Below, piece by piece: positions 6,181 through 56,033 of a stretch of 64,000 nucleotides of DNA (position 1 is its first letter; each line of letters begins with the position of its first letter). The notes under the pieces are model-generated. The model worked only from the letters and a program-made list of their open reading frames with translations, did not search any database and was not told where the DNA came from. Made by a program: the position numbers and the translations under genes. Source of the stretch: Macrocystis pyrifera (taxonomy: Eukaryota; Sar; Phaeophyceae; Laminariales; Laminariaceae); contig JASSKH010000038.1 of assembly GCA_031763025.1 (NCBI GenBank), positions 3,389,001 to 3,453,000 of the forward strand, in the 5' to 3' direction.

Positions 6181-7233
6181 CGGAGGCCGATATTCGATAT
6201 GTGTGTGTTCTTCACATTAATCCGCTACATTTCTACCCGTCGACATCCAGCCAGCACACCCAGTGTCCGGGACGATTCTTCAATGATATGTAGAGAGAAG
6301 AGAGATACAAGTCATGTGGTTACTAAACTACGCCACCGAGATACCATCGGTACGTATTGTTATGCAGCAAGCAGAGTTGACAATGCAATGCCATGCCATC
6401 TTACTGGATACGACAGGCATGAGATACCCATTGTTTGAAAGAAGGGAAAAAAAAACACATCAAAGAAAAGAAAAAACTGTCATTCCCCCACCCAGGGGAT
6501 GTACCAGCATAGATATATGCCGTTCGTGAGACTTGCTGCATAACAAATCCTTGACAGCTAGACCTACTCCGTACAGCCTTGCCTGGCAGCTGTTTTTTCC
6601 TGACCTAAACAAAAAAATGCGATAGTCTGCCGCAAGGAACGTCGTGGTGCCCGACCTCGGAGTTTCCTGGAAGCCAATGAGTCACAGCCGGGTTGCTGGC
6701 CCTTCGCCAGTACACGCTTGTAATGTCCGTACCCGTTGTTCCCCTTTACAGTCAGGGTGCGCACATTTTAGGTCGCCACCGTCACAAGAACCTCCTTCCG
6801 TCTCTGACCAGCCTCAAGCGCTGCTTTCTTTGCCAGCCGACGTGAGGCTCGTCCCCGCCTCATTTTAATCTTCATTTGTTTCATATTCTCTCTCTGTGAC
6901 GAAAGTGGCTCTCCGCTTCGTAGCCCGGTTCGCGCCTTGGTTTCCGTCGACTGGGTGCAGCCGTACCAGCCAACGCCGACACTCCCACCCGTCCTTTCGT
7001 GCATGGGTGTGGCCGGCCTCCACACCATGTAGCGCTCTCTAGGGTGGTTATGTACCCGCCCCACCTCAGGGATTAACTCCTTGGCGTCGGGGTTAAGAAG
7101 AAAAAACATCCCCACCACCCCATGCGGTTTTTGAAGTGGGCATGCCACTGGTCAGACCGCGCAAGGTTTCCTCCCTATCGAGCCCGAGGCTTGATGCCCG
7201 TGTGACTGTGGAGGCAGTGCACAAAAACCCAAC

Positions 7234-7527
7234 CGCGGTAAAGGTCTTCATGGCTAGCGTGACACCGAGGGTCCGCACCTCCACCGCCGAAACGGAGCCG
7301 AAGGCGCCCTGTCCCAGCTGCCTGGTTGCCACCATCCAGGTTATCTCCTTCTCTGCCGGATTTAACATGTGCCCCACCATGAACTCAGCGCCCGTGCCGT
7401 CCGTGCCGCTCGGGGGTCGCGCGCGCTCTACGGAGGCGTTGAACATCTCCCCCGTGTCCATTTCTCCACTTTTGGTGTACATGCTGTTGGGTGGCAGGGG
7501 AGGCCTTGCCTCTACAGCACCCACTAC
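7234..7527 (-). pseudogene. Inverted decoy copy of the kinase glycine-loop exon, copy A
   Basis: On the minus strand this repeats the glycine-loop exon found at 13,814-14,128. It keeps the GQGAFGSV loop and an AMK that corresponds to the ATP-binding lysine, ending at the same ACCGCG exon boundary. The following donor is degraded (GTTGGG instead of GTGAGA). It is the left arm of a palindrome whose right arm is 7,540-7,832, with a 12-nt spacer. The arms are about 80-85% identical to each other and less alike to the true exon. No other kinase exons lie on this strand. Confidence 0.85.
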
Positions 7528-7539
7528 CACCTCCCTGTG

Positions 7540-7832
7540 GCAGTGGCTGCTGTGGAGGCAAGGCCTCTTCCGCCGCCCAATGGCATGTACCTCAAATTGG
7601 AGAAATGGACACGACGTGAGATGTTCAACGCCTCCGTGGGGCGCGCGCGACTTTCAAACGGCACGGAAGGCTCGAACCCTGAGTTCATGGCGGGGCGAAT
7701 GCTGAATCCGACGGAGAAGGAGGAAAACTGGGTCGTGGAAACCAGGCAGCTGGGACAGGGCGCCTTTGGCTCCGTTTCGGCGGTGGAGGTGCCGACCCTC
7801 GCGTCATGGTAGCCATGGAGACGGTTACCGCG
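7540..7832 (+). pseudogene. Plus-strand decoy copy of the kinase glycine-loop exon, copy A
   Basis: This second extra copy of the exon at 13,814 carries GQGAFGSV but has a one-base deletion just before the ATP-lysine region. The deletion brings a TAG into frame at about 7,810, and the codon for the catalytic lysine now reads as glutamate. The donor GTGAGA is intact, and similarity to the true gene continues about 90 bp into the following intron. If spliced in it would truncate the protein. It is the right arm of the palindrome with 7,234-7,527. Confidence 0.85.
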
Positions 7833-8043
7833 GTGAGATTCTTGTTTTCGTTTTTGTTTTAGGGTACTCTTTCTACCATTGGCGTCAGTTTTTTTTGTAG
7901 GCTATTATAGCTGTGAGTCGGACTGAAATATGTCAGTTTTTTTCAGTTTCTCTTCTGGCACGGCAGTTTTTTCTTTCTCTTTTCTCTCGCGATTTGTTTT
8001 CTTGTTGCTTTTATTGGTGTATTTTGGTTTCTCTCTTTCATAG

Positions 8044-8115
8044 GTAGGATCTGTAAGGTGCTTGCAATGGGGACACGGGAGCAGTAGTATCCCCGGCCAG
8101 TTGCCTAGTGAACAG
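8044..8115 (+). CDS. Possible small exon
   Basis: An excellent acceptor (CTCTCTTTCATAG) and a good donor (CAG|GTAGGT) bracket 24 open codons in phase 0 on both sides. The sequence is identical in copy B (42,070-42,141). It lies just downstream of the glycine-loop decoys but does not resemble the exon that follows the true glycine-loop exon. It is supported by splice signals only. Confidence 0.3.
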
Positions 8116-9808
8116 GTAGGTAAACATGACAAAATGTGCCTGAAAAAGAAGGAGTAACAAAACTTATCAGATACGTGCGTAAACGCTTTTTTTCCTAATA
8201 AATGCGGCGAAAGGAGAAAAAAGAAAAGAAAAATATCAATTGCCGTGTATACGTGATGCGAAAAAGACTCACTGAAGAAATGAAAACTGTTTTTTCCTGC
8301 GACTAAAAACAAACCTTCCCGGTATCGCTTTGCTCTCCTGCGGCGAAATAGACCCAAGTTGATTTTTTTCGCCTTACGTACGGTGGAAAATAGGCAGAAC
8401 CGAGCCCTCCACCTCGCGGTCGGTGCGCTACGCCCAATTATGAAGAAACGGGTGCGACAGCGCAACATTCAACAATTCTGCGCCTATTTCCAGCCCTGAT
8501 CCTCGGGTAACAGAGATCTCAATAGCTTTAGATAGATGTTAACGAGCCAGTCTTAATAGTATAGGTGTAATCCAATAAATCAAGTCAGTCCGGCAATACA
8601 TTTCAACCTGTAAACGGTAAAAAAAATGGAACGGCAATAGTTCTGGCGGTGAACGTTTGGCGGAAAGCGTTCTGGCGGTAAAAACGGTAATACCAAGCCA
8701 GGTCGTCATTTTTCTCTCCCGCACTTGTTTCGTTGACCTTACTTCGGGAGAGGAGAGTACATCGATTCGTCAAGATATTATGACTACGTATTGTTGTTCT
8801 TCCCATCCGGCAGTGTGTACATAGCATGGGCTTCAACGTTGATAATTCATAAACACCCCGACAGAAGGAAAACATGGAAACGAAAAGAGCCCTATGCACT
8901 AAGACTTTTAATACCTCCCTTCTGTACCTAATTTTATCTAGTATTTTAAGATGCACCCTCTCTAAATCAGTGCCAGGTCCACTGCAACATCGAACCTTAT
9001 GAACCGTTCTAACCTACCGCTTTAACAACTCAATTCGCTACCTGCCCCCACCCCGAGAGCGACCTCCCCCTCTACCTGTCGCCCTTTTGCTATTATACGA
9101 CCTTATTTTACGACGCAACACATGATATATTATGCCTGGTATGTGTCTAATAGTATACCTTGTAGTCTAGTTTATTTGTTCGTATGTCCTCAGTCCATAA
9201 CATTATGGTACTGCTATATTTTAGGTATCCTTCGAAGAGCGCGGCGGTGGCTTCACCCCCCCCCCCCCTCCCAAGCACTCTCATGGCAACCGACTGCATA
9301 ATCACCGAACGCGTCAATAAACGTGCCGTCACCGACACAAATAACGTGGTCACTACGAGGTGCCGTTGTTGTCCAATTAACTGACTTTAATGGGCAAGTC
9401 GGCTGGCGAATTCAGCTGATAACCAACCGATCTCAGGCCACGGCATCGAAGCGAGCCAAGCCACCCCACTCAGGCCGAGCGGGCGGGGCCAACCCGGTGG
9501 GAGGCGGGGGTGTCCCGGTGGCAACGATCCTCCCTGTAAGTATGGAAACCCGAAACGTCGGATAGTTGGCACCTCCGGGAATCGACTAAATATTAGTCGG
9601 ACTACAGAAATAAGTAGTATTAATAGTCGGTGAGTTGGGTCGTGCCGATTCACAGCTCTATTAGTAATCACCAAAGCCATAACCAAACGCGTTGCCCCGT
9701 CGCGGGCTTGGAGTCGCCGGTCGCTTGCGCGGGGGCTAAAAGCGCCACCAAACGCACCACCGCCGCCGTTATCGCCTCTATCTCTATTATACTGCTCTAT
9801 GTCCATAG
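8116..9808. other. Presumed intron sequence
   Basis: No gene is supported. It is AT-rich, with a short C run near 9,257 and sequence shared closely with 42,142-43,838. Open frames on both strands are short or change between copies. Confidence 0.5.
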
Positions 9809-9919
9809 GGGGAGACTGAAGCACAGACAGCCGCCGCACAGCTGGCCGCGGCGGTCGAGGGGGTGACTATCAAGGAGGAAAACTGTGAGCAGTGGGCGAA
9901 GGCGATCCGCAGGCAACTG
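9809..9919 (+). CDS. Kinase gene N-terminal exon, helical Ala/Glu-rich, copy A
   Basis: Bracketed by a CATAG acceptor and a CTG|GTGAGA donor, with 37 codons in phase 0. The peptide is Ala/Gln/Glu-rich and likely helical. Between copies A and B two changes are synonymous and two alter residues (Thr to Ala, Gln to Leu). It is the first exon confidently attributable to the kinase gene. Confidence 0.65.
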
Positions 9920-10016
9920 GTGAGAGGATGTGTGGCGAGAGGGGCTTGCTTCCTATATTTTCGTTTTCAAAGCAAGCGTGACAGTAACTCGTGTTTTCTT
10001 ACAATGTAAATTTCAG

Positions 10017-10061
10017 CTTGCAAAGATGAGATTCGACGAAGTCCTCGATCGCGCAGCTGAC
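10017..10061 (+). CDS. Kinase gene N-terminal small exon, copy A
   Basis: An ATTTCAG acceptor is followed by 15 phase-0 codons. The donor GTTTGT is weak, and the frame closes at a TAA 27 nt further on, so the exon end is the least certain of this group. Sequence is unchanged in copy B (44,047-44,091). Confidence 0.4.
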
Positions 10062-10796
10062 GTTTGTAGTATTTTTTCTTCCCAAACATAATTGTCTTCC
10101 TGTTAATGGTGTTGTCAGAGGCCTGGTATGCCGGTAAGGTAACGGTGCAGATTGTGTGAATGTTTCACGCGTAGGACAGATCACGATCTATATATCTATC
10201 TATCTACTGCAGATGATCCTACCGTGGATCGTAGCCTGCAGTTGAGAAAACGCGCAAAATAACTCTGTGGCAGGATGCCCATGTAGATGAGGTGTGCGCG
10301 GAAGTGTGAATGAGCGCAAAATTACTCTAAAGTCCCCCTTTTGCTATCAGTAGTGCGGTACACACAAGCGCGTATTTCAGTCTAAATACAGGTAGTTTGT
10401 ACCCTAATTGGGAGTGCAGTCCTAACGGGGTTAAACTTGAAGGTGTGGTGCATCCGCGTGGTGCGTCCCTGGCAACCCACCGGCCTTTCTGCAGCCTGGG
10501 TCCGTACCGAGTACGCCTTATGTGTTCATACGTGGTGATATTTATATGCCATATACTGTGACTCTATATATGCTCGATACACACAGTATGGACATTGGTT
10601 GTTTCGGTTGTCATTCGGTAGTTGTCCAGACAGTCCACAACATGTTTTTCAATCCACTATCGATCGAATAACACTGATGTATCTCTTTGAGGGAAGTGCC
10701 TATCGTGACGACAGCTGACAACACATAAATTAGCGCGTTTTATACGATATACTTATCAAGCGTGTCTGAGCAGTTTATCGACAACGGCTGTCCTCG

Positions 10797-10978
10797 CTGA
10801 CTGATTGGTTGGTTAATTGATTGACTGGTCGAGTGGTACACTGATGGCTTGCTTGGTTGACTGATTCGTTGATTAGTTCATTGATTAGTCAATAGATCAA
10901 TCGATTGATTTTGACTGGTTGACTGAAGGTTTGATTGATTGCCTGATTGATTGCCTGATCGGTTTATTGATCGATTAT
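10797..10978. repeat. GATT/GACT tetranucleotide-type minisatellite in an intron
   Basis: A run of degenerate TGATTGAT, TGACTGGT and similar 4-mers directly precedes the acceptor of the exon at 10,984. It is present with small differences at 44,826-45,008. Confidence 0.85.
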
Positions 10979-10983
10979 ACCAG

Positions 10984-11073
10984 GATGAGGAAAGAGATGG
11001 CGTCGCTACGTGGACGAAAACGACCGGCGAGGGGCTCAGGCTACGAGCTCAAGCCGAAGTGGAAGAGCAAGAG
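10984..11073 (+). CDS. Kinase gene N-terminal exon, charged, copy A
   Basis: An ATACCAG acceptor and GAG|GTAGGT donor bracket 30 codons in phase 0. The peptide is highly charged and ends Glu-Glu-Gln-Glu. A second frame is also open here, but phase 0 fits the neighbours. Copy B has one replacement (Thr to Ala) and one synonymous change. Confidence 0.55.
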
Positions 11074-11350
11074 GTAGGTGACCATGAGGGAGGTATTGTT
11101 CGCTTCAGTACTTACGGTTAGAGTTACTGTAGTCCAATGTCGGTATAGGATGATCGTCCTACCCGCGCGTTCTGCTCTTTAAATTGCCGCGTCGCTCTGA
11201 CTCTGACAAACGCTCCCAATACGCGTGGCACAGGAGGATTATGATCTGTACCTAGAGCAGATAAGCTTCTGAAATCATTGAAAGAGAGACCAGTAACAAA
11301 GGTGCTCTTTTCGACCCCGCCGCGTTGCCGCTCGTGGACAGTTGGTTCAG

Positions 11351-11734
11351 CTAGCAGGTGATGGTGGCCACGGTGGCGATGGCGGTAATCGTGGTGGTGG
11401 TGGTGGTGGTGGTGGTGGCACGAGGGGGACGGACGCGCCCTACAAAGCCGACGTGGGCCTCCTCGAGGCCCGGTTGGCAGCGGCGGGGCCAAGCCCTTCA
11501 CGCAGCTTCGCCGAAATAGAGGCGACGGCCGCCTGGCAGCAAAACTGTGAGGCGCGCACCCGCCGCCGCGATCTGCAGAACAACCACAACAGGATGGTGT
11601 TCTCAAGCACCAACGATACAATGGGAAAAATCAACAGCATGCCCGCCGAGGACCGGGAACGTTTCATCCACCGCCGGCAGGCTGAGGTGGACCGCATACT
11701 CCGCCGCCTTCAGGACATGCTTGGGGTCCTCAAC
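11351..11734 (+). CDS. Kinase gene N-terminal exon with poly-Gly and coiled-coil-like region, copy A
   Basis: A GTTCAG acceptor and AAC|GTGAGT donor bracket 128 codons in phase 0. The exon opens with a Gly-rich run encoded by GGT repeats, followed by an Arg/Glu-rich helical segment with regularly spaced Leu, Ile and Arg near its end. Copy B has one fewer glycine, an in-frame change. The reverse strand gives a poly-His open frame that is only a shadow. This region may act as a dimerisation helix. That is inference. Confidence 0.7.
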
Positions 11735-12337
11735 GTGAGTCATACCTATGTTTCGTACTCCAATACTTGCCATGTTGATATTGGTTGCGTGCACGAGATT
11801 CGTTCGCTGGACATGTATCAGGTGAAGAAGGTGGGAACGGCGTTGATTCTGCACCCCCCAATCCCTCACCAATGCCCCCATATTGTGCATTGTTCTGGCG
11901 GTTTTTGTTCCAACGTTTTTTCGTGTTTCTTATGGGATACCAAAGGGGTAGAGGGGATTTTGTAAAAAAAAACAAGAGGCGAGAAACTAATTTCCCGGGG
12001 ACAACCCAACGTTTTTACCACCGTTTCGGCCATTTGGTAGGGAGGAGAGGGGGGACAAAAAAATGGACAGCGGCGTTGACAGAGGGATACTACGGTGTGT
12101 TATTGGCACAGTGAATGTTGTTTTGGTATGAACATGACAAGTTACAGTCGGTCGAAGGAGTCGTTTTGACCGCTGTTTCGCTTTTATCTATACAGTATAA
12201 GCATTGTCATGTTTCTAATAGCACAGGGCTTGCCCCCTTCCCCTACCCCCTTCTTCGACACGTGCTTAGATCTGAAGCATTTACTCACCTCCCCGTCTCA
12301 CGGTGTCGATCCGAATGACTGTTATTTTAATCGCCAG

Positions 12338-12502
12338 GCCCGAGAGCATATTCTGAGTGAAGCCGTTGCAGAAGCCCGCGCCGACGTGCTGAGGTTGTGG
12401 CGCCTCTCCTTGGCTAGAGCGAGGGCCTTGGCTGTCGCTCTAGAAGACCATGCACTGATGAAACGGCCCAAAATGCAAATCAAGATGACAAACACACAAG
12501 AG
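12338..12502 (+). CDS. Kinase gene N-terminal helical exon, copy A
   Basis: A CGCCAG acceptor and GAG|GTATGC donor bracket 55 codons in phase 0. The peptide is an Ala/Leu/Arg-rich amphipathic helix (repeated ARA and LAL motifs) with a basic end. Copy B differs by one Ile to Val change. With the preceding exon it forms a long helical region ahead of the kinase domain. Confidence 0.7.
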
Positions 12503-13813
12503 GTATGCTTGCCGCATGCATGCACATGCACGTCACGGCTGTCTGTGTGATTGTTGGTGGTGTTGTTGGGCATGGTGAGGTTGTTATGTTAGTGTCTCAG
12601 CACAGTTAACAGTAAACTGCTGATAGGTGGAAACAAGTTTATTGTTGGGGTTGTTGAGGGGTGAATTGACTTTTTCCTGTGTCTTTTAAACCGGAGACGA
12701 TGACTGGTGGAACAAGCAATTTATTAAATTTTGTTCGACGAGAGACACGGTATCTACACACGAAGTACATACATATATGTATACGTGCGAGAGGGTAGCA
12801 GCGAGTCAAATGAATTTATTCATTCGTTCATTAATTAGTCAATTACTTGGGTATAATGTGAAATCATGTATCCCCACCTCCGAGGCGCCCACCCACACCC
12901 CATTTATTCTGTATACGATCGAGATAATAGTTCAATTCGTATTTTAAAACTACTACTGTGGAAGACATGTATACACGATAGTACGATACCAAATACCTGG
13001 TAAATACGACCAGGTAGATGAATTACTGTAGTTGATGGTTTTTTGTTTTTATTAGGAGACGATCAGCTCTGAGCCAACAAAAATGAGTTTTTTTTCCCCA
13101 ATAGTATACCAGGTAGACGTTTTTATCAAATTAATATACTGGTCTCATCTGTGAAGTACATATTGATGTCTAGTAGGGGAGGGTATCAGAGCGAGGCTGG
13201 AAAGAGCCTAACATCGAATGGAGAGTCGGGTAGGGGGGTATGGCACGAGCAAACAGCCATATGTCGGTTCGGTCTTGCCTCGTGGTCAAACCCGTGGACG
13301 TGAATAGTGGCCTGAAAATATGACAAAGGATCCCAGGCGGCGGCGGGGGGGGGACAGGGCGAGTTCTGTTTCTGAATTTTGCATGCGGCTGCTGGAAGTA
13401 ATAACATCCGCTTTTGTGCTGCCGCAACGGGGGCTGGATGCGTGCACCACCCGCTCGTCGTTTTGGTTGCTGCTGATCGCCTTTGAGCTGCGGCTATTGC
13501 TCTGCGTCGTGTATGGTAACACCCGCGAGCTGAATGGACGACGTCTCGCGCGTCGTTTCGTGTTGCCGGGTTCCACCTTTGATAGGTTCTGTGCTACGTG
13601 TTGCGCTGCCTCATTCACTGCCGTGGTAACCCGCGCTGAAGGAGCCACTGCCCCCTCTGCTGCCTCTCCCCTCCCATCACCCCCCTCTTCCTCCAAACCA
13701 CCCCGCCTCCCACCCCACCCTCCTAACCCCACATAACTCCCTTCCCCCCCCCCCCCCGCTCATACAACATCATCTCATCTCATCTCATCTACGCTCGGGT
13801 CCCCTCCGCGAAG
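12503..13813. other. Intron before the glycine-loop exon
   Basis: It contains AT-rich sequence, several TACCAGGTA-type motifs (12,993, 13,107), a pyrimidine-rich tract at 13,650-13,760 with a C run, and a CATCT tandem run just before the acceptor. No exon is supported. Confidence 0.55.
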
Positions 13814-14128
13814 CATGATGCACCCGCGGCGGTAGCAGTGGCTGCTGTAGAGGCAAGGCCTTCTCTGCCGCCCAACAGCCTCTACACCACAGTGGGGAAC
13901 TGGAAACGAGGGGAGATGTACAACGCCTTCGTGGATCGCGCGTGATCCTCGAACGGCACGGGCGAAACGGACGAAACGGAAGCCGAATTCATGGCGGGGC
14001 GCATGCTCTCGCATGACAAAATCTGGATGGTGGCAGCCAGGGAGCTGGGGGAGGGCGCCTTCGGCTCCGTTTCGGCGGTGGAGGTGCCGACTCTCGGAAT
14101 TGCACTCGCTGTAAAGAGCTTTACCGCG
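13814..14128 (+). pseudogene. Kinase glycine-loop exon with an in-frame TGA, copy A
   Basis: This 315-nt exon (phase 0 to 0; donor GTGAGA) encodes a linker and kinase subdomains I and II: GEGAFGSV, the ATP phosphate-binding loop, and LAVK with the invariant lysine. At 13,943-13,945 the frame has TGA where copy B has CGA (47,975-47,977), a C to T change at a CpG. This stops translation before the kinase domain unless it is read through or is an assembly error. Two other replacements (Lys/Glu, Ile/Thr) separate the copies. Confidence 0.85.
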
Positions 14129-14528
14129 GTGAGATTCTTGTTTCGTTAGGTTTGGCGTACTGTTTCTACCACTGGCATCAGTTCTTGTTTTTCTGTGGGC
14201 TATTATAGCTGTGAGTCGGTCCATTTTTATTTTTGTTTGATGATACGATGCTTGGCTTTTCACGCTGTGTGCTGCATCATATATGCGTGTGCCGTATGCA
14301 TTATTTTCGTTTGTTTTGTTTTTGTTGCCTCTTGCGGGTGTGCCCGCTCGCGGCCGCAGGCATTGTTTGCTTTCTTCCTTTGATTTTTTCTACCTTCCTT
14401 GTGTCTTCCCTGCCTTCCTAGCCGCCAACAGTTCACTTATCCCCCCCCCTTCCCTCTTTGGAGCTGTGCACCCTTACCCTTCTCCCCCTTGTATGTACCT
14501 GTGCGTGTGCTCATCCCAACCCCGGCAG

Positions 14529-14617
14529 CCAAAGAACGGAGAGGGTGATGGGCACGACGGCGCGAACGCGAGGACTGCCCGGATGACCTTTGTCACGGAA
14601 ATGTCTGTACATCTTCA
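14529..14617 (+). CDS. Kinase helix-C exon, copy A
   Basis: A CCCGGCAG acceptor is followed by 29 codons plus two bases and a CA|GTGAGG donor (phase 0 to 2). The segment TFVTEM places a glutamate where helix C should salt-bridge to the lysine of the previous exon (subdomain III). A Gly/Asp-rich insert precedes it. Copy B has Ala for Ser next to this glutamate. Confidence 0.8.
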
Positions 14618-15245
14618 GTGAGGACGTGTGCCGCGCTTTGTGTCTAATGTTTGTTTTCGGTTTGTAGCCCCGTCTCCCTTTGTACCAATCGCCGCAGCAT
14701 CGCCTGACTGACCACAAGGCAGCGATACAACAACACCAACTAACAAAATAAAAACAACTGTTTTTGTCGCACCGCTCGCGCCAAACCAGGTATAAACCAT
14801 CGTTGACTTCGCCTTGTCTGTGTTCCCTGGCCTGTCCGTCTTGAGGGCTTTACACCCACGTTCAGTCGCTGTATGCACGGCTGGTGTACTCGAATGTGTT
14901 GTGTTGTGCTGAATTGTGCTGTGCCTTGCTGTGCGGCGCTTGGTGTACGGCGGTATCGCAGCCTTGCTACCCTCCCCTCCCCCCCCGCCCCTATTCTCTC
15001 GAAGATGTTCACCCGACCCTGCTCACGCACGGATGTTCGCTCGCATCTATTCCCTAGTGCCCCGCCAATAAATTCCCTATTACTCAGCTGATAGAATTCG
15101 TATTGTCCAGCATGTAGTTCTCATTAACCCGCCAAGGTACTAGCTATTCCCCCGCATGTAATCCCTAGCATCACGCCAATAGATTCCCCGCTCACCCTCT
15201 GCTATCCCCTATTCCCCCGTACTTACATGTGTTTGCTTGTTTTAG

Positions 15246-15392
15246 GGTGCCGGCGCATCCGCATATTTGCGCCCCGGTCGCGATGGATGACAGGTCCCTC
15301 AGCCACATGAGGATCATTTTTGAGCTGGGAGAAAGTGACCTGGAGGATGCCGCTTGGGGTCTCACGTCAATGAGTCTGAGTGTTGTGTTGCG
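15246..15392 (+). CDS. Kinase N-lobe to hinge exon, copy A
   Basis: A GTTTTAG acceptor and a CG|GTGAGA donor bracket 147 nt (phase 2 to 2). It encodes strands 4 and 5: HPHICAPVAM, then RIIFELGESDLEDA, typical of the segment leading to the hinge and helix D. Four of five differences from copy B are synonymous. Confidence 0.85.
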
Positions 15393-15827
15393 GTGAGATT
15401 GAGTTCTACCTAAAGTCATCATTTTTCTGTCTTCCAGGAAGAAATGCCTCTTTCATCCTTTTGCCCAAACAAATGAGCCTGTCTGTCTGGCGGAGATATC
15501 CAGGCGGTTGTCGCCAGCTTTTATTCTCCCGGCCCATGCGTGCACTTTTCGAGTTGACACCGCGTATAGAGATTCAGAGTAAAATTAAACAAAAAAAACA
15601 GACCCGGGGCACCAATGATTTTTTACGAGGATGGTGAGTAGTTAAGGACGGTTCGTAAAACGAAACGATTTCGACCAAGTCCTTACATACAACTCGCTGG
15701 ACAGTTATTATGTGCGTTTTCTCCCCCGCCCGTTCCCGCTCTCCTTGTCTCACACATGTAATCCTCCTACAAGCGTTCCCCGTGTTTTGGTGATCACGTT
15801 TTCGTTTACCGCCACCAACCATTGCAG

Positions 15828-15942
15828 TTCCGTCGCCGAGGTCGCCACAGCTCTAGCGCACATGCACCAGTCTGATTTAGTCCATAATGAAGTCGGGCCG
15901 CCTTCGCATCATATGAAGGCGGCAAACGTCATTGTGGACTAG
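15828..15942 (+). pseudogene. Decoy catalytic-loop exon with in-frame stop (possible poison exon), copy A
   Basis: It has a good acceptor (CCATTGCAG), and its first base completes the split codon left by the exon at 15,246-15,392. It reads SVAEVATALAH and LVHNE, where the catalytic Asp is replaced by Glu, and ends with TAG after NVIVD. No clear donor is visible. Changes between copies A and B are replacements (Ala to Pro, His to Arg), as expected without selection. Confidence 0.75.
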
Positions 15943-15991
15943 GCCACACTGGTTCAGGTGCGCTAGAGCGGTGGCAACCTCGCCCACGAGA
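15877..15991 (-). pseudogene. Inverted decoy of the catalytic-loop exon, copy A
   Basis: Antisense copy with its own CTTTTGCAG acceptor reading toward lower coordinates. It keeps VGEVATALAH and LVHND, then departs from the kinase sequence at the palindrome centre and ends at TAA. No other exons are found on this strand, so it is not part of a second gene. Confidence 0.75.
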
Positions 15992-16104
15992 CTGCAAAAG
16001 TTGGTTGGTGGTAAACGGAAACGAAGGAACCTAAATACGAGAACGTTTCGGTGGGCGTCATGTGTAAGACAGGGAGGGCGGGAACGGGCGGGGGGAAGGG
16101 TTGT

Positions 16105-16260
16105 GCTCGATATCATGCATGGCCGTAGTCGCATGCATGACTATAGACCCTCGCATCCCTACAATGCCGGAACGGAGCACTCTGGTTTTCACTGGCGAGG
16201 CAGACATTGCTTGCACCAAGTGCGAAGCGCCGAGAGGTGTTCGGCGAGTGGCATGAAGGG
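16105..16260. repeat. Dispersed repeat, copy in intron A
   Basis: About 150 bp beginning GTGCTCGATATCATGCATGG, with CCTCGCATC and ACAATGCCGG motifs. It recurs at about 28,458-28,610 and at 50,146-50,300. It lies immediately beside the catalytic-loop palindrome. Confidence 0.75.
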
Positions 16261-16743
16261 TGACCTGCATCCTACTAAGAACCGCTTGTGAGGCGGACTT
16301 GCATATGAATGGCGGCTTCCACGAGTTAGTATATTTTCCGGTGTGACTTCTTCCAGAGATAGCAATGGGAGTACTATGTAACTGCCTCGCGGGTGTCCTA
16401 CCATAAACACTACGTGACACGATCATTCCCCATATGTGGGTCTCCAACCCGCACAGAATATCTAACTTGATCGCCAGCTGTGACCCGACCGCCAACAAAA
16501 ACAAACAATCGATACTCGTACCCTGGCTGTTTAGCTCACGTAGTGAGTGGCATGTTTTACAGTGTCGTTGCCAACGGACGCTAGCCCAACATATATACAA
16601 CATATAGGGGAGGGCCTAACGTAGAGTCAATATTTTTTATTTGCCCGCCCGTTCCCGCCCTCCCTATCGTATACATGAAATCCACCGCTACAATCTCGCG
16701 TTTCGGTTCCCTCGTCTCCGTTTACGGCCATCGACCTTTGCGG

Positions 16744-16892
16744 TCTCGTGGCCGAGGTCGCCATGGCTCTGGCGCATCTTCATAAATCTAGCCTTGTCCA
16801 TAACGATGTGAAGGCCGCTAACGTTCTTGTGTTCTCCGACGGGCCTGGCACGAGCCCAACAGCGAAGCTAACAGACTTTGGTCTAGCGGCTG
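16744..16892 (+). pseudogene. Kinase catalytic-loop/DFG exon with lost AG acceptor, copy A
   Basis: The 149-nt exon (phase 2 to 1) encodes VAEVAMALAHLH, the catalytic loop LVHNDVKAANVLV with catalytic Asp, Lys and Asn, and TDFGLA, the metal-binding motif. The residue before the catalytic Asp is Asn, so this is a non-RD kinase. The base pair before the exon is GG (16,742-16,743) where copy B has AG (50,805-50,806), so normal splicing should fail. All seven coding differences from copy B are synonymous. Donor GTGAGC is intact. Confidence 0.85.
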
Positions 16893-17451
16893 GTGAGCAA
16901 TCGATCTGTACTGTGGTGTGTGCTTTATGCCTTTGCTTTCTGGACGGGTTTTGTGCGGGGTACGAGAGGACGCGGGCGGGAGGCGGGGCGGGAGGGAGGG
17001 AAGGAAGGGAAGAGGGAAGGTGCAGGAGCGGTGTATGAGATATGAAGTGGCGTTCTTTCGTCCTATCGTCCTCGCTTGAATTTAAAGGTCGTCCCTAAGG
17101 TACGGAGAAATATGTTTTGATTATTTGTCTTGTTGCGATTTTGTGCTTTAGTACTGTCATTTGCTTGCTGCCCTTGACATTTCCGTGCATTCTCTGCTTG
17201 AACCATGACCTTCCTCGCTCCTCGTTGTTCTTCCGCCACAACCGCCGTTTTCTCTCGCCGGCACTACTACCGCTACCACTTGCACTGCCGCCACGGCTAC
17301 CACCATCGCCGCTATCACCGCCGCCACCACCTACCACCGCCACCGACGAATATGTCGGCCGCGGGTAACACGCGCGCCCCGCCACCCCCCCCCGTTTCTT
17401 ACCCGTCACCATCACTCCTCACCGACGCGACGTGCGAACAAAAAACAACAG

Positions 17452-17624
17452 CTGTAGGGGATATTCGGTACGGCCAGGGAACTCTCGGGAGCAAACCTCC
17501 GGAGGCCATGCAGGGCCGACTCGTGCCCTGCACTCCCGATCAAGACGCGTTCGGTCTTGGGCACCTGTTTTTGCTGGTGGTGTCTAAGCCTTCCGTCAAG
17601 CGCCATAACATGTTCGCCATCGAG
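17452..17624 (+). CDS. Kinase activation-segment and helix-F exon, copy A
   Basis: An ACAACAG acceptor supplies two bases that complete the split codon after DFGLAA. The exon then encodes RYGQGTLGSKPPEAM, where PPEA stands for the APE motif and GT for the P+1 loop, followed by DAFGLGHLFLLVVS, the helix-F Asp-x-x-x-Gly region. It ends in phase 0 at GAG|GTGGGT. All five differences from copy B are synonymous. Confidence 0.85.
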
Positions 17625-17792
17625 GTGGGTGGTGTGCTGGGTTGGCGTGAAACTGGTATTCATAGTCGACCGACGGGGACGAAGTGGGGGGTATGGTTAG
17701 TGTTAAAGGTGGGTTGAGAGAGCTGGGGCAAGGATAGCGAGTAAGCCGCCAGAGGCAACGTGGAACAGACGATGCGTGTCCTGTGTTCCGGA

Positions 17793-18012
17793 CTTCCAAG
17801 TTCACGCCAAGCCATCACATCACCCACCTTGCTCACGAACGTGTGGTGGCTCTTGAGTTGTTTCTTTGAGACGATAAGCAGGAGGAGAGTAAGCATCTCT
17901 TCGCCCTGAGGTATCTCCTGCTTGTACATTCTAAGAACGAATTAATGGGTCACGATATGGTTCTGGGCATGGTGGGTTGGGTGATGGTTTGGCGGGAACG
18001 TGAAAGTCACTC
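17793..18012. repeat. Palindrome made of two helix-F exon decoys, copy A
   Basis: Centred near 17,903. The minus-strand arm (exon part 17,828-17,905) reads LLLLIVSK with the following GTGGGTG donor and intron. The plus-strand arm (exon part 17,896-17,971) reads YLLLVHSK and also runs on to a GTGGGT donor and intron. Both match the end of the exon at 17,452-17,624. They are more diverged from each other (about 60-65% by eye) than the other two decoy pairs. Equivalent in B: 51,912-52,130. Confidence 0.75.
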
Positions 18013-18640
18013 CCCCGGGACGGGGCGGTGGGTGGGGGATGGTTGGGGGATGGTTCGAAGAACGGTCCCGTGCTTTGCGATAGAACAGGACGGAGGAGAG
18101 TTATCTGAGGACCGTGTGTAGCGAAAGAGGTCAGTATAACCACAAACACAGCATTTGTGTGGGGAACCCTCGGTAGGCAGACTTGGAGCTGACCTCCATA
18201 CCCTCCCCAACATTTTGATGTAATTACCGGCAGTCACCCTACCAATACAATACTGTAAGCTTGTTTGTCGTCACCTAAATTCTGTTGTCGGCGCAGCCTC
18301 AAAATATCCCCCCCCTCCCCCTGCCGCCGGCGACCCATTCCTTGTACCGCGTTGCTGACAACGCTAGGCTGCAATAACTGCGGAGGATAAGAGGGAACTG
18401 CAAACAAGAGGCGTTGCGGACCAGATGGTGTGCATGGTGAGTCAGTCCGTGTTGGTGCCAGATTGGCAGACACCCACCCCCTCTATTGCTCTACTGTGTA
18501 CTACTGTAGTACGTACGTAAACGCTGACACTCTGAACTCTCTCGTGACCGCAGCCCTTTTTTCGCTTTTCGTCGTCCCTCCCTTGGTTCTTTCATTCTTT
18601 CCGTTCGTAAATCCTTGACCTCAGCTTCGCCCTCAACCCT
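18013..18640. other. Intron sequence
   Basis: No exon is supported. It includes a run of C at about 18,308-18,325 and pyrimidine-rich stretches. Confidence 0.5.
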
Positions 18641-18840: not shown

Positions 18841-18939
18841 GAGAATATTACCCACCGCAACATGACCGAACCTTCGTTCCGGCGTAAAGTCATCAACAAA
18901 GAGAACCTACGCCCCGAGCTTAGCGACGTGTTCCAAGAG
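18841..18939 (+). CDS. Kinase helix-G exon, copy A
   Basis: A GCGCAG acceptor and GAG|GTAAGT donor bracket 33 codons in phase 0. It encodes FRRKVINKENLRPEL, which is typical of the helix G to helix H linker of kinases (subdomain X). The single change from copy B seen in the exon is synonymous. Confidence 0.85.
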
Positions 18940-19520: not shown

Positions 19521-21419
19521 GCCTTGGAGATAGCTGATCGGTCGACATCGCCCGATCCTGCCCAGCGACAGCCTCTGACGGAGCTTGCCAAGGCCATCAT
19601 GAGCCTGAGCAACCATGTGTCGCATAAAGAGAGGGTCCTTTCCTCTGCTGTTTCTCCGGCATCCGGCAACGTGGCCGTGGCCGCTGTTGCTGCTCCCCTT
19701 CCTGCGTTGGTGAGGCTTACTGCGGAGGACACCGCTCACTTGCCGGAAGTGTCCGTCGACGGCCACGGTGCTACCCGTGCTACCCGTGTTCCTGCTGCTC
19801 CTGCTGCTGCTGCTGCTGCTGCTGTTGGTGTGATGCTCGGTGGTGGTGGTGGTGGGGCTGCAAGGGGTCTTCCCCCCACGCCCGCCATTACGAGAACGGC
19901 AGCAGCACCGGAAGGACCTGAGAGAGTCCAGAGACTACCTCCGGGTCTCTTCGTCGTGGGCAGTGGTGGAGATGTGCTTCCCACCCCCCGCGCTGTCACC
20001 CCCGTCGAGATTGTCAATACCACCGGCATCGGGGACGCTGCCGCTGTGGCCACCACAGCTGCAACTACTACCGTCGCTAGAGAGGCGGGAGCAGTGCACT
20101 ACTCCCTTCCGGAGAGTAACTTTACGACGTCGATGAGCACGAGTGGTGCCGTCGGTAACGTCAGAACACGCATCAGTGGTGGCCATGATGCCGGCGGCGG
20201 CCACGGTGGAGGACGGTACGGTGGCGGTTACGCCATTCAGGGACCGGCGCAAGCGCCCGCCGCGGCATGGGTCGACGAGGGTTTGTCCGTCGGCAGGGAT
20301 CCCGTTTTGGACGGTAAGAGGACTGCTGCCGGAGCGCCAACATGCCACCGCCCTTTCCTGAGGCACGCGCAGGCGGCCCACGTTAACGTGGCGGATGCCG
20401 TTCCTCAACCCATGCAGGCTGGGCGGTACGCCCCTTTCCGGGAGGAGCGCGGCGGCCGTGGCAACGATGCCTGCGGCGACACCCGAGGTGGCCACGGCGG
20501 TGGTCACGGAGAAGGTACAGGAGGGTATGTGAATCCCCCTAGCGCTGCATGGGAAGGTGTGCATCTGCGTTGTTCTCCTCAACAAGCGGGCTTCAGCGGT
20601 ACCGGAGGCAAGAGGTACGGCACCACGGTGGTGGTGTCCCCTCCGCAACGGTATTGGGGCGGACGAGATGGAGGAGGAGGAGGAGGAGGAGGAGCATCGG
20701 GAGACAGACTAGGAGGAGGTGGATGGAGAGAAGGAGGAAGAGGAGGGGGGGGAGGAGGGGGAAGAGGGGCGGGTTCCAGTCGCCGTGACGCGAGAGCAGC
20801 CGCCCCCATCGCCGCCGCTTCCCCCGGCCACCACCACCGCCCCCAACACCAACACCAGTGGAGGACGGCCGAGGGCGGCGGCGGCGGCAGCAGCAGTGGA
20901 CGCGGAAGCCGTGGTACCAGCAGCCGCGGTAGCGGTAGTGGCTCTGGCGGAAGCGGGCACAACGGTGGGTTCGCCGCGTTCCATCAGCGGAAAAAACGGC
21001 GGGCTCGCGGAACCCTTCCCCCGCGCTCGAGGGAAGGGAGCGAGAGCAGGGGCGTCAGCCACCACCACCGTCACCCTGGATTTCAGGAGACGAGCACCGC
21101 TCGCCGACCCGTGCGCCAAGGAGGCGGATTGGAGCCTGTTACACGTTTCGGTGGTGGCGGTGGCGACGGCGGCGGCAGCGGGTGTCGCGGGGGTATAGGT
21201 TACCTCCCGGCACCGCCCTGCGCCGCCGGACCCGCTACGTACGGCAACTACGGTGGGTGTGCGTCGGGCACTCCTCCTCAATGGCCTGTTGCCGCATATG
21301 GGCCCTTCGCGTATCAGGCGACTGCGGTGGGTGGGACGGGTTACTACTGCAGGCACGCTGGGTACCGTGGGCACGCTTGGTGCGGCGGCCAAACTTGGTG
21401 TACTAGGCGCGCCGAATAG
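19521..21419 (+). CDS. Kinase C-terminal exon with long Gly/Ala-rich tail, copy A
   Basis: A CTTTTGTAG acceptor opens a 632-codon frame in phase 0, ending TAG. The first 20 residues complete the kinase fold: SPDPAQRQPLTEL carries the subdomain XI arginine. The rest is low-complexity Gly/Ala/His/Arg/Tyr-rich sequence with RGG-like and GGxG runs, which suggests a disordered or RNA-binding tail (inference). In copy B the same exon is frameshifted about 90 codons in. Confidence 0.8.
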   Translation, partial: ALEIADRSTSPDPAQRQPLTELAKAIMSLSNHVSHKERVLSSAVSPASGNVAVAAVAAPLPALVRLTAEDTAHLPEVSVDGHGATRATRVPAAPAAAAAAAVGVMLGGGGGGAARGLPPTPAITRTAAAPEGPERVQRLPPGLFVVGSGGDVLPTPRAVTPVEIVNTTGIGDAAAVATTAATTTVAREAGAVHYSLPESNFTTSMSTSGAVGNVRTRISGGHDAGGGHGGGRYGGGYAIQGPAQAPAAAWVDEGLSVGRDPVLDGKRTAAGAPTCHRPFLRHAQAAHVNVADAVPQPMQAGRYAPFREERGGRGNDACGDTRGGHGGGHGEGTGGYVNPPSAAWEGVHLRCSPQQAGFSGTGGKRYGTTVVVSPPQRYWGGRDGGGGGGGGASGDRLGGGGWREGGRGGGGGGGRGAGSSRRDARAAAPIAAASPGHHHRPQHQHQWRTAEGGGGGSSSGRGSRGTSSRGSGSGSGGSGHNGGFAAFHQRKKRRARGTLPPRSREGSESRGVSHHHRHPGFQETSTARRPVRQGGGLEPVTRFGGGGGDGGGSGCRGGIGYLPAPPCAAGPATYGNYGGCASGTPPQWPVAAYGPFAYQATAVGGTGYYCRHAGYRGHAWCGGQTWCTRRAE

Positions 21420-21874: not shown

Positions 21875-21904
<30 letters not shown>

Positions 21905-21940
21905 CCCCTCCCCCCCCCCCCCCCCCCCCCCCCCCCCACG

Positions 21941-21988
<48 letters not shown>

Positions 21989-21998
21989 ACCCCCCCCC

Positions 21999-22059
<61 letters not shown>
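21875..22059. repeat. 185-nt cytosine tract, copy A
   Basis: Almost pure C with only six single-base interruptions (at 21,904, 21,909, 21,938, 21,940, 21,989 and 21,999). The matching site in B is 46 uninterrupted C. All polyproline and polyglycine frames across it are artefacts. Confidence 0.95.
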
Positions 22060-22060
<1 letters not shown>

Positions 22061-49100: not shown

Positions 49101-52100
49101 CCCGCCAATAAATTCCCTAATACTCAGCTGATAGAATCTCTATTGTCCCGCATGTAGTTCCCATCAACTTGCCAAGGTATTAGCCATTCCCCCGCATGTA
49201 ATCCCTAGATATCACACCAATAGATTCCCAGCTCCCCCTTTGCTGTCCCCTATTCCCCCGTACGTACATGTGTTTGCTTGTTTTAGGGTGCCGGCGCATC
49301 CGCATATTTGCGCTCCGGTCGCGATGGATGACAGGTCCCTCAGCCACGTGAGGATCATTTTTGAGCTGGGAGAAAGTGACCTGGAGGATGCCGCTTGGGG
49401 CCTCACGTCAATGAGTCTGAGCGTTGTGCTACGGTGAGATTGAGTTCTAACTAAAGTCAGTATTTTTCTGCTCCAGTGCCTTCCAGGAAGAAATCCCTAT
49501 TTCATCTTTGCCAAAATGAATGAGCCTGTCTGTCTGGCGGAGATAATCAGGCGGTTGTCGCCAGCTTTTATTCTCTCCCGGCCCATGTGTGCAATTCGAG
49601 TTGACACCGTGTATAGGGCTTCAGAGTTAAATTAAGCAATAAAACAGACCCCGGGGCACCATTGATTTTTTACGAGGATGGTGAGTAGTTAAGGACGGTT
49701 CGTAAAACAAAACGATTTCGACCAAGTCCTTACATACAACTCGCCGCACAGTTATTTTGTACGTTTTCTCCCCCGCCCGTTCCCGCTCTCCCTGTCTCAC
49801 ACATGTAATCCTCCTACAAGCGTTCCCGTGTTTTGGTGATCACGTTTTCGTTTACCGCCACCAACCATTGCAGTTCCGTCGCCGAGGTCGCCACAGCTCT
49901 ACCGCACATGCACCAGTCTGATTTAGTCCGTAATGAAGTCGGGCCGCCTTCGCATCATATGAAGGCGGCAAACGTCATTGTGGACTAGGCCACACTGGTT
50001 CAGGTGCGCTAGAGCGGTGGCAACCTCGCCCACGAGACTGCAAAGGTTGGTGGCGGTAAACGGAGACGAAGGAAATACGAGAATGTTTCGGCGGATTACA
50101 TGTGTAAGACGGGGAGGGCGGGAACGGGCGGGGGGAAGGGTTGTGCTCGATATCATGCATGGCCGTAGTCGCATGCATGACTATAGACCCTCGCATCCCT
50201 ACAATGCCGGGACGGAGCACGTCTGGTTTTCACCGACCAGGCAGACATTGCTTGCACCAAGCGCGAAGCGCCGTGAGGTGTTCGGCGAGTGGCATGAAGG
50301 GTGACCTGCATCCTACTAAGAACCGCTTGTGAGGCGGACTTGCATATGAATGACAGCTTCAATGAGTTTGAATATTTTCCGGCATGACTTCTTCCAGAGA
50401 CAGCAATGGGGGTACTATGTAACTGCCTCGCGGGTGCCCTACCATAAACACTACCACTACGTGATACGATCATTCCCACTTGTGCGGGGTAAAGGATATT
50501 CACCTCGCACAAATTGTCTAACTCGCCAACCAGCTGTGACCGACCGCCAAAACAAAAATGAAAAAATTGGTACCCTGGCTGTCTAGCTCACGTAGTGAGC
50601 GGCGTGTTTTACAGTGTCGTTGCCAACCGACGCCAGCCCAACATATATACAGTAGATAGGGGGAGGGGGGGGATAACCCCAACGTAGAGTTAATATTTTT
50701 GATTTCCCCACCCGTTCCCGCCCTCTCTGTCTTACACGTGTAAACCACCGAAACATTCTCGTGTATTGGTTCCCTCGTCTCCGTTTACGGCCATCAACCT
50801 TTGCAGTCTCGTGGCCGAGGTCGCCATGGCTCTGGCGCATCTTCACAAGTCTAGCCTCGTCCATAACGATGTGAAGGCCGCTAACGTTCTTGTCTTCTCC
50901 GACGGGCCCGGCACGAGTCCAACAGCGAAGCTAACAGACTTTGGCCTAGCGGCTGGTGAGCGATCGATCTGTACTGTGCTGTGTGCTTAATGCCTTTGCT
51001 TTCGGGACGGGTTTTGGGCGGGGTACGGGAGGACGCGAGCGGGAGGTGGGGCGGGAGAGAGGGAAGGAAGGGGGGAGGGATCGTGTAGGAGCGGTGCACG
51101 TCAAATAAAGTGGCGTTGTTTCGTCCTGTCGTCCTCGCTTGAATGTAAAGGTCGTCTCTAAGGTACGGTGTAATGTGTTTTGATTATTTTTGCTCTTGCG
51201 ATTTTGTGCTTTAGCACTGTCATTTGCTTGCTGCCCTTGACATTTCCGTGCTTTCTCTTCTTGAACCATGACCTTCCTCGCTCCGCGTTGTTCTTCCGCC
51301 ACAACCGCCGTTTTTCTCTCGCCGGCACTACTACCGCCATCGCTACCGCTACCACTTGCGCTGCCGCCCCGGCTACCGCCATCGCCGCTACCACCGCCGC
51401 CACCACCCACCACCGCCACCGACAAATATGTCGGCCGCGGGCAACACGCTCGCCCCGCCACCCCCCCCCGTTTCTTACCCGTCACCATCACTCCTCACCG
51501 ACGCGACGTGCAAAAAACAACAGCTGTAGGAGACATTCGGTACGGCCAGGGAACTCTCGGGAGCAAACCTCCCGAGGCCATGCAGGGCCGACTCGTGCCC
51601 TGCACTCCCGATCAAGACGCGTTCGGTCTTGGGCACCTGTTTTTGCTGGTGGTGTCTAAGCCTTCCGTCAAGCGGCACAACATGTTCGCCATCGAGGTGG
51701 GTGGTGTGATGGGTTGGCGTGAAACTGGTATTAATAGTCGACCGGCCGGGGACGAAGTGGGGGGTTTGGTTCGTGTTAAAGGTGGGTTGGGAGAGCTGGG
51801 GCAAGGGTAGGGGTAGGGGTAGGGTTCAAGGTGGGTTGGGAGAGCTGGGGCAAGGATAGCGAGTAAGCCGCCGGAGGTAACGTTGGGCAGATGACGGGTG
51901 CGCTGTGTTCCGGACTTCCAAGTTCACGCCAAACCATCACATCATCCACCTTGCTCACGAACGTGTGGTGGTTCTTGAGTTATTTCTTTCAGACGATAAG
52001 CAGGAGGAGAGTAAACATCTCTTCGCCCTGAGGTATCTCCTGCATGTACTTTCAAGAACGAACTAAAGGGTCACGATATGGTTCTGGGCATGGTGGGTTG

Positions 52101-55987: not shown

Positions 55988-56033
<46 letters not shown>
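55988..56033. repeat. 46-nt cytosine tract, copy B
   Basis: Uninterrupted C run matching the 185-nt interrupted tract at 21,875-22,059. Confidence 0.95.

What the first reader, a model, noticed from the sequence alone, without database searches (positions are those of the whole stretch)
7234..18012. Three kinase exons each have a palindromic pair of decoy copies in the same gene's introns
Seen: the glycine-loop exon, the catalytic-loop exon and the activation/helix-F exon each recur as one plus-strand and one minus-strand degenerate copy fused into an inverted repeat (7,234-7,832; 15,721-16,100; 17,793-18,012). No other kinase exon shows this, and no other minus-strand exons exist. Three separate foldbacks in one gene, each built from a different exon, are unlikely to be chance debris. 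Known: inverted duplication of target genes can found plant microRNA loci. Inference: the pre-mRNA would carry three long self-complementary stems, possibly giving small RNAs against this kinase or its paralogues. Alternatives are donor cassettes for gene conversion, or repeated template switching at fragile sites.
Basis: partly seen in the sequence, partly recalled or inferred. Interest (0 to 1): 0.92.

Follow-up and report, generated by a model that had tools for sequence, protein, structure and literature searches.

The report
Inverted exon copies in kelp kinases
In what is very probably giant kelp, a multiplying family of protein-kinase genes has repeatedly gained back-to-back mirror copies of its own exons; the mirrors are real and old but look like slowly decaying leftovers of DNA-copying errors, and a gene-silencing role stays open mainly for one of them.

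Summary
All three palindromes are at the stated places, recur in the window's second tandem gene copy, and recur in the six copies of this kinase gene found on the contig. They are not chance or an isolated assembly slip, and predate the tandem copies. Corrections: P1 is not shown to lie in an intron; P3 is very degenerate. The process is recurrent: related kinase clusters carry a palindrome of a fourth exon, in 11 of 11 copies found, and another contig holds a separate palindrome of the glycine-loop exon. P2 has the layout X-A-A'-(transposon)-A-Y against an empty-site relative: an inverted triplication made in place, as fold-back template switching would give. Stem pairs in P2 and P3 are lost as in two independent sequences, arm coding constraint looks relaxed, and real exons show no patches copied from the arms. 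Best explanation: relics of repeated small inverted duplications in a fast-duplicating gene family. A small-RNA role is unsupported for P2 and P3 but open for P1, which could fold into a long hairpin over the glycine-loop sequence.

The parts
7221..7534 (-). P1 minus arm: inverted copy of the glycine-loop exon plus donor-side intron start; keeps an open frame over the exon (with a compensated +1/-1 shift inside)
7537..7921 (+). P1 plus arm: direct copy of the same exon and intron start, with a 1-base deletion near its end
6892..6948 (-). probable inverted remnant of the next kinase exon, continuing P1's minus arm (E 0.007; 0 of 1000 shuffles)
15723..15901 (+). P2 plus arm: copy of acceptor-side intron end plus 5' part of the catalytic-loop exon; preceded by the ancestral intron flank
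15926..16092 (-). P2 minus arm: inverted copy of the same segment
16086..16606 (+). dispersed repeat between P2 and the real catalytic exon segment; 16086-16260 by the genome search (40 of 3418 candidates scored), the rest by likeness to C200 and K2
17791..17899 (-). P3 minus arm: degenerate inverted copy of the end of the activation/helix-F exon and its donor
17900..18044 (+). P3 plus arm: degenerate direct copy of the same segment
41248..41872 (.). P1 in the second tandem gene copy
49770..50134 (.). P2 in the second tandem gene copy
51913..52129 (.). P3 in the second tandem gene copy
11435..11725 (+). exon N1, the exon used in palindrome P4 of the C200/C218 relatives
12302..12472 (+). exon N2
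13832..14130 (+). real glycine-loop exon (first copy; in-frame TGA at 13943-13945)
14529..14618 (+). exon after the glycine loop
15247..15393 (+). hinge exon
16744..16894 (+). real catalytic-loop exon (first copy; acceptor AG lost at 16742; present in the second copy)
17448..17624 (+). real activation/helix-F exon
18841..18939 (+). kinase C-lobe exon
19521..19637 (+). start of the last kinase exon

Best explanation
The three palindromes are relics of repeated small-scale inverted duplication or triplication of this gene family's own DNA. A replicating strand folded back on itself or switched template and copied an exon and some flanking intron backwards, then forwards again, leaving A-A'-A. 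P2 shows this layout (shown). That it arose by fold-back or template switching is inferred. The events happened at different times, were then multiplied passively with the tandem gene copies, and the stems of P2 and P3 are decaying without detectable selection for pairing; P1's two arms may have been homogenised by exchange with each other. I see no required function.
For: (1) P2 against the two K1 relatives read (one on C218, one on C200), which lack it: the left flank of P2's first arm is collinear with their intron directly upstream of the exon. So the order is ancestral flank, A, A', about 500 bp of dispersed repeat plus 37 bases, A, rest of exon. (2) Copies include intron on the donor side (P1, P3) or acceptor side (P2, P5), so they arose from DNA, not spliced RNA. 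(3) Recurrence in one family with graded arm identity, a rough and fallible age scale: about 63% (P3), 72% (P4, exon N1, in 11 of 11 C200/C218 K1 copies found), 76% (P2), 82% (P1), 88% (P5 on C208). (4) Stem decay as for independent sequences: P3 in the window versus one K2 locus keeps 35 of 63 comparable pairs (56%; expected 53-57%), 2 compensatory; P2 L041 versus A keeps 92 of 108 (expected 91.7), 1 compensatory; among the close P2 and P3 copies 0 or 1 compensatory pair each. (5) Arm-versus-arm dN/dS 0.88 and 0.74 (91 codons), 0.88 (50), 0.46 (48) against 0.39 (89) for real exons C128-C218. (6) P2 alone is found only on C128 (12 of 12 candidates scored); P1 only on C128 apart from relatives' single exons, a 57-base flank repeat and P5 (40 of 96 candidates scored).
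Against: P1 lies about 6 kb from the real glycine exon, so it is not a simple triplication in place, and at 17-19 sites all four arms compared differ alike from the real exon. A 35-base glycine-loop block is nearly unchanged in P1 arms and real exon (3 of 34 sites vary against 60 of 124). A scan over all windows gives p 0.0094 for four arms and 0.021 for two arms plus real exon, but 0.37, 0.13 and 0.17 for single pairs. Drift explains the stronger figures poorly, though conversion tracts would. P1's minus arm keeps a 100-codon open frame. The 0.46 dN/dS value points towards some constraint. P3 in K2, not seen by BLAST against itself, still scores above 200 of 200 shuffles for self-pairing (88, null maximum 56; window P3 140), so pairing is weakened there, not gone. 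P3 junctions could not be placed to the base.
Confidence: 0.7

Rival explanations
1. P1 (and perhaps others) is a young hairpin small-RNA locus. The transcript folds into a long stem, Dicer makes about 21-nt RNAs, and these damp the expanding kinase cluster, as in the inverted-duplication route to plant MIRNA genes.
For: P1 as RNA folds at -542 kcal/mol with 301 pairs and a 53-bp unbroken helix (G-U allowed) over the glycine-loop block still matching the real exons. A Piwi-domain (Argonaute) gene is present at one locus. In Phytophthora, 21-nt small RNAs come mainly from inverted repeats and several gene families (PMC3804510, passages read). Ectocarpus loads 21-nt RNAs into a single AGO, and that study used 354 miRNAs, 295 of them putative (PMC12867755, passages read).
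Against: No RNA data. In the second copy the longest P1 helix is 38 bp (no shuffle control run there). P3 and P2's plus arm have no 21-mer within 2 mismatches of their exon. Pairs of P2 and P3 are lost as in independent sequences. P1 is not shown to be transcribed. The Ectocarpus miRNA study found no evidence that its miRNAs derive from protein-coding genes (PMC4513859, passages read). The block conservation is post hoc and modest.
Confidence: 0.13
2. Mobile-element capture: palindromic elements (MITE or Pack-type) picked up exon fragments and inserted them.
For: The genome holds mobile palindromes: P0 at 4658-5179 has 37 further scored places outside C128 at 95-97% identity (40 of 1091 candidates scored), and a palindrome is inserted in the P1 arm of one copy with about 10 bases of overlap. 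No other kinase exon was seen in the 3.1 kb read around P5.
Against: P2 was found only on C128 and P1 likewise among scored candidates. P2 is collinear with the empty site as a triplication in place. Terminal repeats or target-site duplications at P1-P3 were not established.
Confidence: 0.1
3. Donor cassettes: the copies feed sequence into the real exons by gene conversion, diversifying the kinases.
For: Copies sit close to the exons; the cluster shows mosaic identity between tandem copies; P1 arms group by locus rather than by arm (6-7 sites against 1, and 1-2 for the third grouping), so arm-to-arm exchange may occur.
Against: Of 22 changes private to one of the six real catalytic segments (15, 4, 2, 0, 0, 1), no arm carries the private base at more than 1 site. 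In 5 of the 6 real glycine exons (L029 left out) only 7 columns vary, with no run of arm-like variants.
Confidence: 0.04
4. Assembly artefact.
For: C128 is a 3.7-Mb contig, below the large scaffolds of the assembly; fold-back reads are a known artefact class (recalled).
Against: Arms differ by 12-37%, and the structures recur in six diverged C128 copies and on C218, C200 and C208. Artefact arms would be nearly identical.
Confidence: 0.02

Closest known systems
Inverted triplications with palindromic junctions (ODIRA, DUP-TRP/INV-DUP, fold-back models); abstract of PMC10766186 read
   Same: A-A'-A order with palindromic junctions, made by aberrant replication or template switching
   Different: Here about 0.1-0.4 kb, confined to an exon and its flank, old, and recurrent within one gene family; no replication origin tested
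Short-range template switching (great-ape genomes); abstract of PMC7954356 read
   Same: Local copying from a nearby alternate template
   Different: Palindromes here were kept long enough to be inherited by many gene copies
Inverted-duplication origin of plant MIRNA genes (Allen et al. 2004, seen only as a reference; PMC3237417 abstract read)
   Same: Inverted copies of a target gene able to form a hairpin that matches the parent gene
   Different: No small RNA or promoter shown, stems decaying; multiplied along with the parent gene rather than standing alone
Inverted-repeat small-RNA loci of Phytophthora (PMC3804510, passages read)
   Same: Stramenopile with inverted repeats and clustered gene families
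   Different: Expression shown there, not here
Exon shuffling and alternative splicing of brown-algal ROCO genes (PMC11378527, search listing only)
   Same: Exon-level turnover in a brown-algal gene family
   Different: Inverted, degenerate copies of kinase exons here

Membership tests
Inverted triplication in place (A-A'-A) | Inverted copy between two direct copies, ancestral flanks on the outside | tested here: met
   P2: with one C218 and one C200 locus as empty sites
Inverted triplication in place (A-A'-A) | Same order for P3 with junctions placed to the base | tested here: inconclusive
   The two relatives lack P3 but breakpoints could not be placed
Inverted triplication in place (A-A'-A) | Same for P1 | tested here: not met
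   P1 is about 6 kb from the real exon and has only A' and A locally
MIRNA / hairpin siRNA locus | Transcript with long self-complementary stem | tested here: inconclusive
   Folds strongly; transcription not testable here
MIRNA / hairpin siRNA locus | Discrete small RNAs from both arms | not testable with these tools
   No RNA reads available
MIRNA / hairpin siRNA locus | Stem pairing kept by selection (compensatory change) | tested here: not met
   P2, P3. P1 copies too alike to judge
MIRNA / hairpin siRNA locus | Known Rfam RNA family | tested here: not met
   0 matches in the window at gathering scores
MITE / Pack-type transposon | Dispersed copies | tested here: not met
   P2 only on C128; P1 likewise among 40 of 96 candidates scored; P0 does meet it
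Processed (mRNA-derived) pseudogene fragments | No intron sequence in the copies | tested here: not met
   Arms carry intron flanks
Protein kinase domain (Pfam PF00069) | Match of the parent gene above the gathering score | tested here: met
   Joined exons of the second copy, without the exon at 48566-48655: 70.8 bits against 31.7

The most novel reading that the evidence does not exclude
P1-type exon palindromes are a self-limiting brake of an expanding gene cluster: each gene copy carries its own hairpin whose glycine-loop stem is kept close to the exon, giving 21-nt RNAs that silence the whole kinase family, while sister clusters evolved the same brake from other exons (P4, P5).
Probability: 0.1. 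Interest if true: 0.85.

Novelty: new variant of a known kind. Interest (0 to 1): 0.42.

Why it matters
Exon-sized inverted copies arose again and again in one young gene family and can be roughly ranked by age, so their origin, spread and decay can be followed in one genome. They are raw material from which hairpin small-RNA genes are thought to start. Small RNAs from kelp would show directly whether such raw material is used or simply rots.

Tried and rejected
Chance: rejected by E-values, shuffles and recurrence. A minus-strand kinase gene: rejected, the three minus copies lie in the wrong order for one gene (glycine loop at 7 kb, catalytic at 16 kb, activation at 18 kb). Retroposition: rejected because copies carry intron. 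Known RNA family or tRNA: none. P0 as an exon palindrome: rejected, dispersed repeat. Hypermutable palindrome: rejected as a reading of L017/L018, because their flanks differ about as much as the palindromes do. Donor cassettes: see rivals.

Background: 27 other loci (88 kb; 18 of them brought in by one repeat, 8 of them other kinase loci) hold 4 self-inverse palindromes of 200 bp or more, all in repeat-hit loci and with their arms found in other loci too; the 8 other kinase loci hold none of that size. Three further kinase loci (15 kb) hold none of that size. C200 upstream (L075 3640-3858) holds one of 225 bp matched nowhere else in what I held. So exon palindromes look enriched in this family, but the sample is small and not random, and I could not test other gene families: the PF00005 control search did not complete.

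The first shuffle control for the exon remnant at 6892-6948 failed (script error); rerun. An EsV-1-7 search (PF19114) to confirm a brown alga did not complete.
Full report
Source. The window is G000:C128:3389001-3453000 of a 537,376,219-base genome in 223 contigs. The published giant-kelp (Macrocystis pyrifera) assembly has 537 Mb in 223 contigs (35 scaffolds and 188 contigs), GC 50.4% (PMC10498591, passages read). I take the organism to be giant kelp; this rests on those statistics only, because the brown-alga marker search did not complete.

Anatomy. The window holds two tandem copies (about 1-24.6 kb and 35.1-58.5 kb, 95.8% identical over 21 kb) of a gene whose exons together match the protein kinase domain (PF00069, 70.8 bits). 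Exons, first copy: N1 11435-11725, N2 12302-12472, glycine loop 13832-14130, next exon 14529-14618, hinge 15247-15393, catalytic 16744-16894, activation/helix F 17448-17624, then 18841-18939 and 19521 onwards. These bounds rest on conserved peptides and splice signals, not on transcripts. The first copy has an in-frame TGA in the glycine exon, a lost acceptor AG, and 15 private changes in the catalytic segment, against 0-4 in each of the other five copies, so it is probably a decaying copy; the second shows none of these defects.

P1 has minus arm 7221-7534 then plus arm 7537-7845(-7921), 82% alike. P2 has plus 15723-15901 then minus 15926-16092, 76%. P3 is 17791-18008, 63%. Each contains exon plus intron flank: P1 and P3 the donor side, P2 the acceptor side. 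In the second copy they stand at 41248-41872, 49770-50134 and 51913-52129. Self-pairing scores beat 200 of 200 shuffles for each.

Spread. P1 occurs at six places on C128, two of them shortened about the centre (40 of 96 candidates scored). P2 occurs at six (12 of 12 scored) and P3 at six (15 of 15 scored). Six real glycine exons were found on C128. They therefore predate the tandem copies. P3-like sequence also occurs at 9 places on C218. The one I read (L076/L077) is a second kinase type, K2, with P3 at the same intron site. There BLAST no longer finds it self-inverse, but its self-pairing score, 88, still exceeds 200 of 200 shuffles (maximum 56; the window's P3 scores 140).

Recurrence. The K1 relatives that I read, one on C218 (L043) and one on C200 (L044), lack P2 and P3. 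They carry P4, a palindrome of at least 845 bp (about 1.1 kb; arms 70-72%) of another exon, N1. It was found in 11 of 11 K1 copies with an N1 exon, the 10 others being 93-94% like the query. On C208 a palindrome (P5, L037 1311-1673, arms 88%) is built from the upstream intron and first half of the glycine exon, with no other kinase exon seen in the 3.1 kb read. So palindromes of at least four exons arose in one family, apparently at different times.

How P2 was made. In C218 and C200 the intron runs straight into the exon. In the window the same intron runs into P2's first arm, then comes the inverted arm, then a dispersed repeat (to 16606) and 37 bases, then the real exon segment. Removing the inserted part gives a collinear alignment with the relatives. 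That is X-A-A'-A-Y, an inverted triplication. The same layout at far larger scale is described for inverted copy-number variants (PMC10766186, abstract), and small-scale template switching is known (PMC7954356, abstract). P3 sits about 100 bases after its exon; its junctions are unresolved. P1 is not in place: it lies about 6 kb upstream, in a stretch with no counterpart in the C200 locus. At 17-19 sites its arms differ alike from the real exon. Its minus arm probably continued into the next exon at 6948-6892: E 0.007, 0 of 1000 shuffles as good, K1's exon has an extra residue at the same point, but L017 and L018 lack it.

Is it maintained? P3, window against K2: of 63 comparable Watson-Crick pairs 35 are unchanged (56%), 2 compensated, with 34 sites changed; independent decay predicts 53-57%. 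P2, L041 against A: 92 of 108 unchanged, 1 compensated, 17 of 216 sites changed, prediction 91.7. dN/dS between P1 arms is 0.88 and 0.74 (91 codons each), 0.88 (50) and 0.46 (48); between real exons of C128 and C218 it is 0.39 (89). P1 arms group by locus (6-7 sites) rather than by arm (1) or crosswise (1-2), consistent with arm-to-arm conversion or separate origins. No arm-like patches appear in real exons.

What speaks for a use. P1 as RNA folds into 301 pairs at -542 kcal/mol with a 53-bp unbroken helix in the first copy, 38 bp in the second. That helix overlies a glycine-loop block in which 3 of 34 sites vary among four arms and a real exon, against 60 of 124 elsewhere (Fisher p 2e-5). A scan over all windows gives p 0.0094 for the four arms and 0.021 for two arms plus the real exon, but 0.37, 0.13 and 0.17 for single pairs. 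In the C128-C218 comparison the block is not conserved (11 of 35). Conversion could do this; so could selection for a target site. Only P1 has many 21-mers close to its exon (61 of 294 and 44 of 289 within 2 mismatches; perfect only 2, against the second copy); P2's arms have 0 of 82 and 14 of 85; P3's arms 0 of 89 each. Piwi-domain matches (5, one locus) show an Argonaute gene.

Background. Other palindromes of 200 bp or more in the window and in 88 kb of other loci are dispersed repeats: P0 and the four in the sample; one in C200 (L075) is unexplained. The sample is not random.

Literature. Searches for inverted exon copies and brown-algal palindromes listed no report of this: 10 of 11 papers listed; 15 of 80; 12 of 1,121; 4 of 4. 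They cover only the open-licence library, and most hits of two searches were not listed.

Verdict: real, recurrent and old, most likely relics of small inverted duplications; a hairpin role for P1 is testable and not excluded.

Noticed in passing
window 4658-5179 and 38668-39191: MITE-like palindrome; about 495 bp of it recurs at 37 scored places outside C128 at 95-97% identity (40 of 1091 candidates scored), apparently a recently active family.
   Followed up: partly
window 16086-16606: Abundant dispersed repeat (3418 candidate places, 40 scored), also lying beside kinase exons in this family (L043 4437-4753, K2 L076 121-674) and arranged as inverted pairs elsewhere (L062, L072, L073).
   Followed up: partly
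window 13943-13945; L029: The same TGA in the glycine exon occurs in the first window copy and in the C128:3335551 copy, while the other four copies lack it: shared by conversion or descent.
   Followed up: partly
window 6626-8370 versus 40651-42400: Identity between the two tandem copies rises above 99% here but falls to about 87-90% at 16.3-17.1 kb: mosaic, as from gene conversion.
   Followed up: no
L017 1983-2499 (C128:3327234-3327750): A palindrome (arms 80%) inserted in the P1 plus arm of one copy with about 10 bases of overlap, like a transposon with target-site duplication.
   Followed up: partly
C128:3333637-3333792 and 3162876-3163042: Inverted copy of exon N1 in two C128 gene copies, opposite to the nearby real N1 exon; its second arm, if any, was not examined.
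   Followed up: no
window 21875-22066 and 55988-56033: Low-complexity proline/glycine tract that differs in length between the two gene copies.
   Followed up: no
L075 3640-3858 (C200:10203640-10203858): 225-bp palindrome of unknown source upstream of a K1 gene, matched nowhere else in what I held.
   Followed up: no
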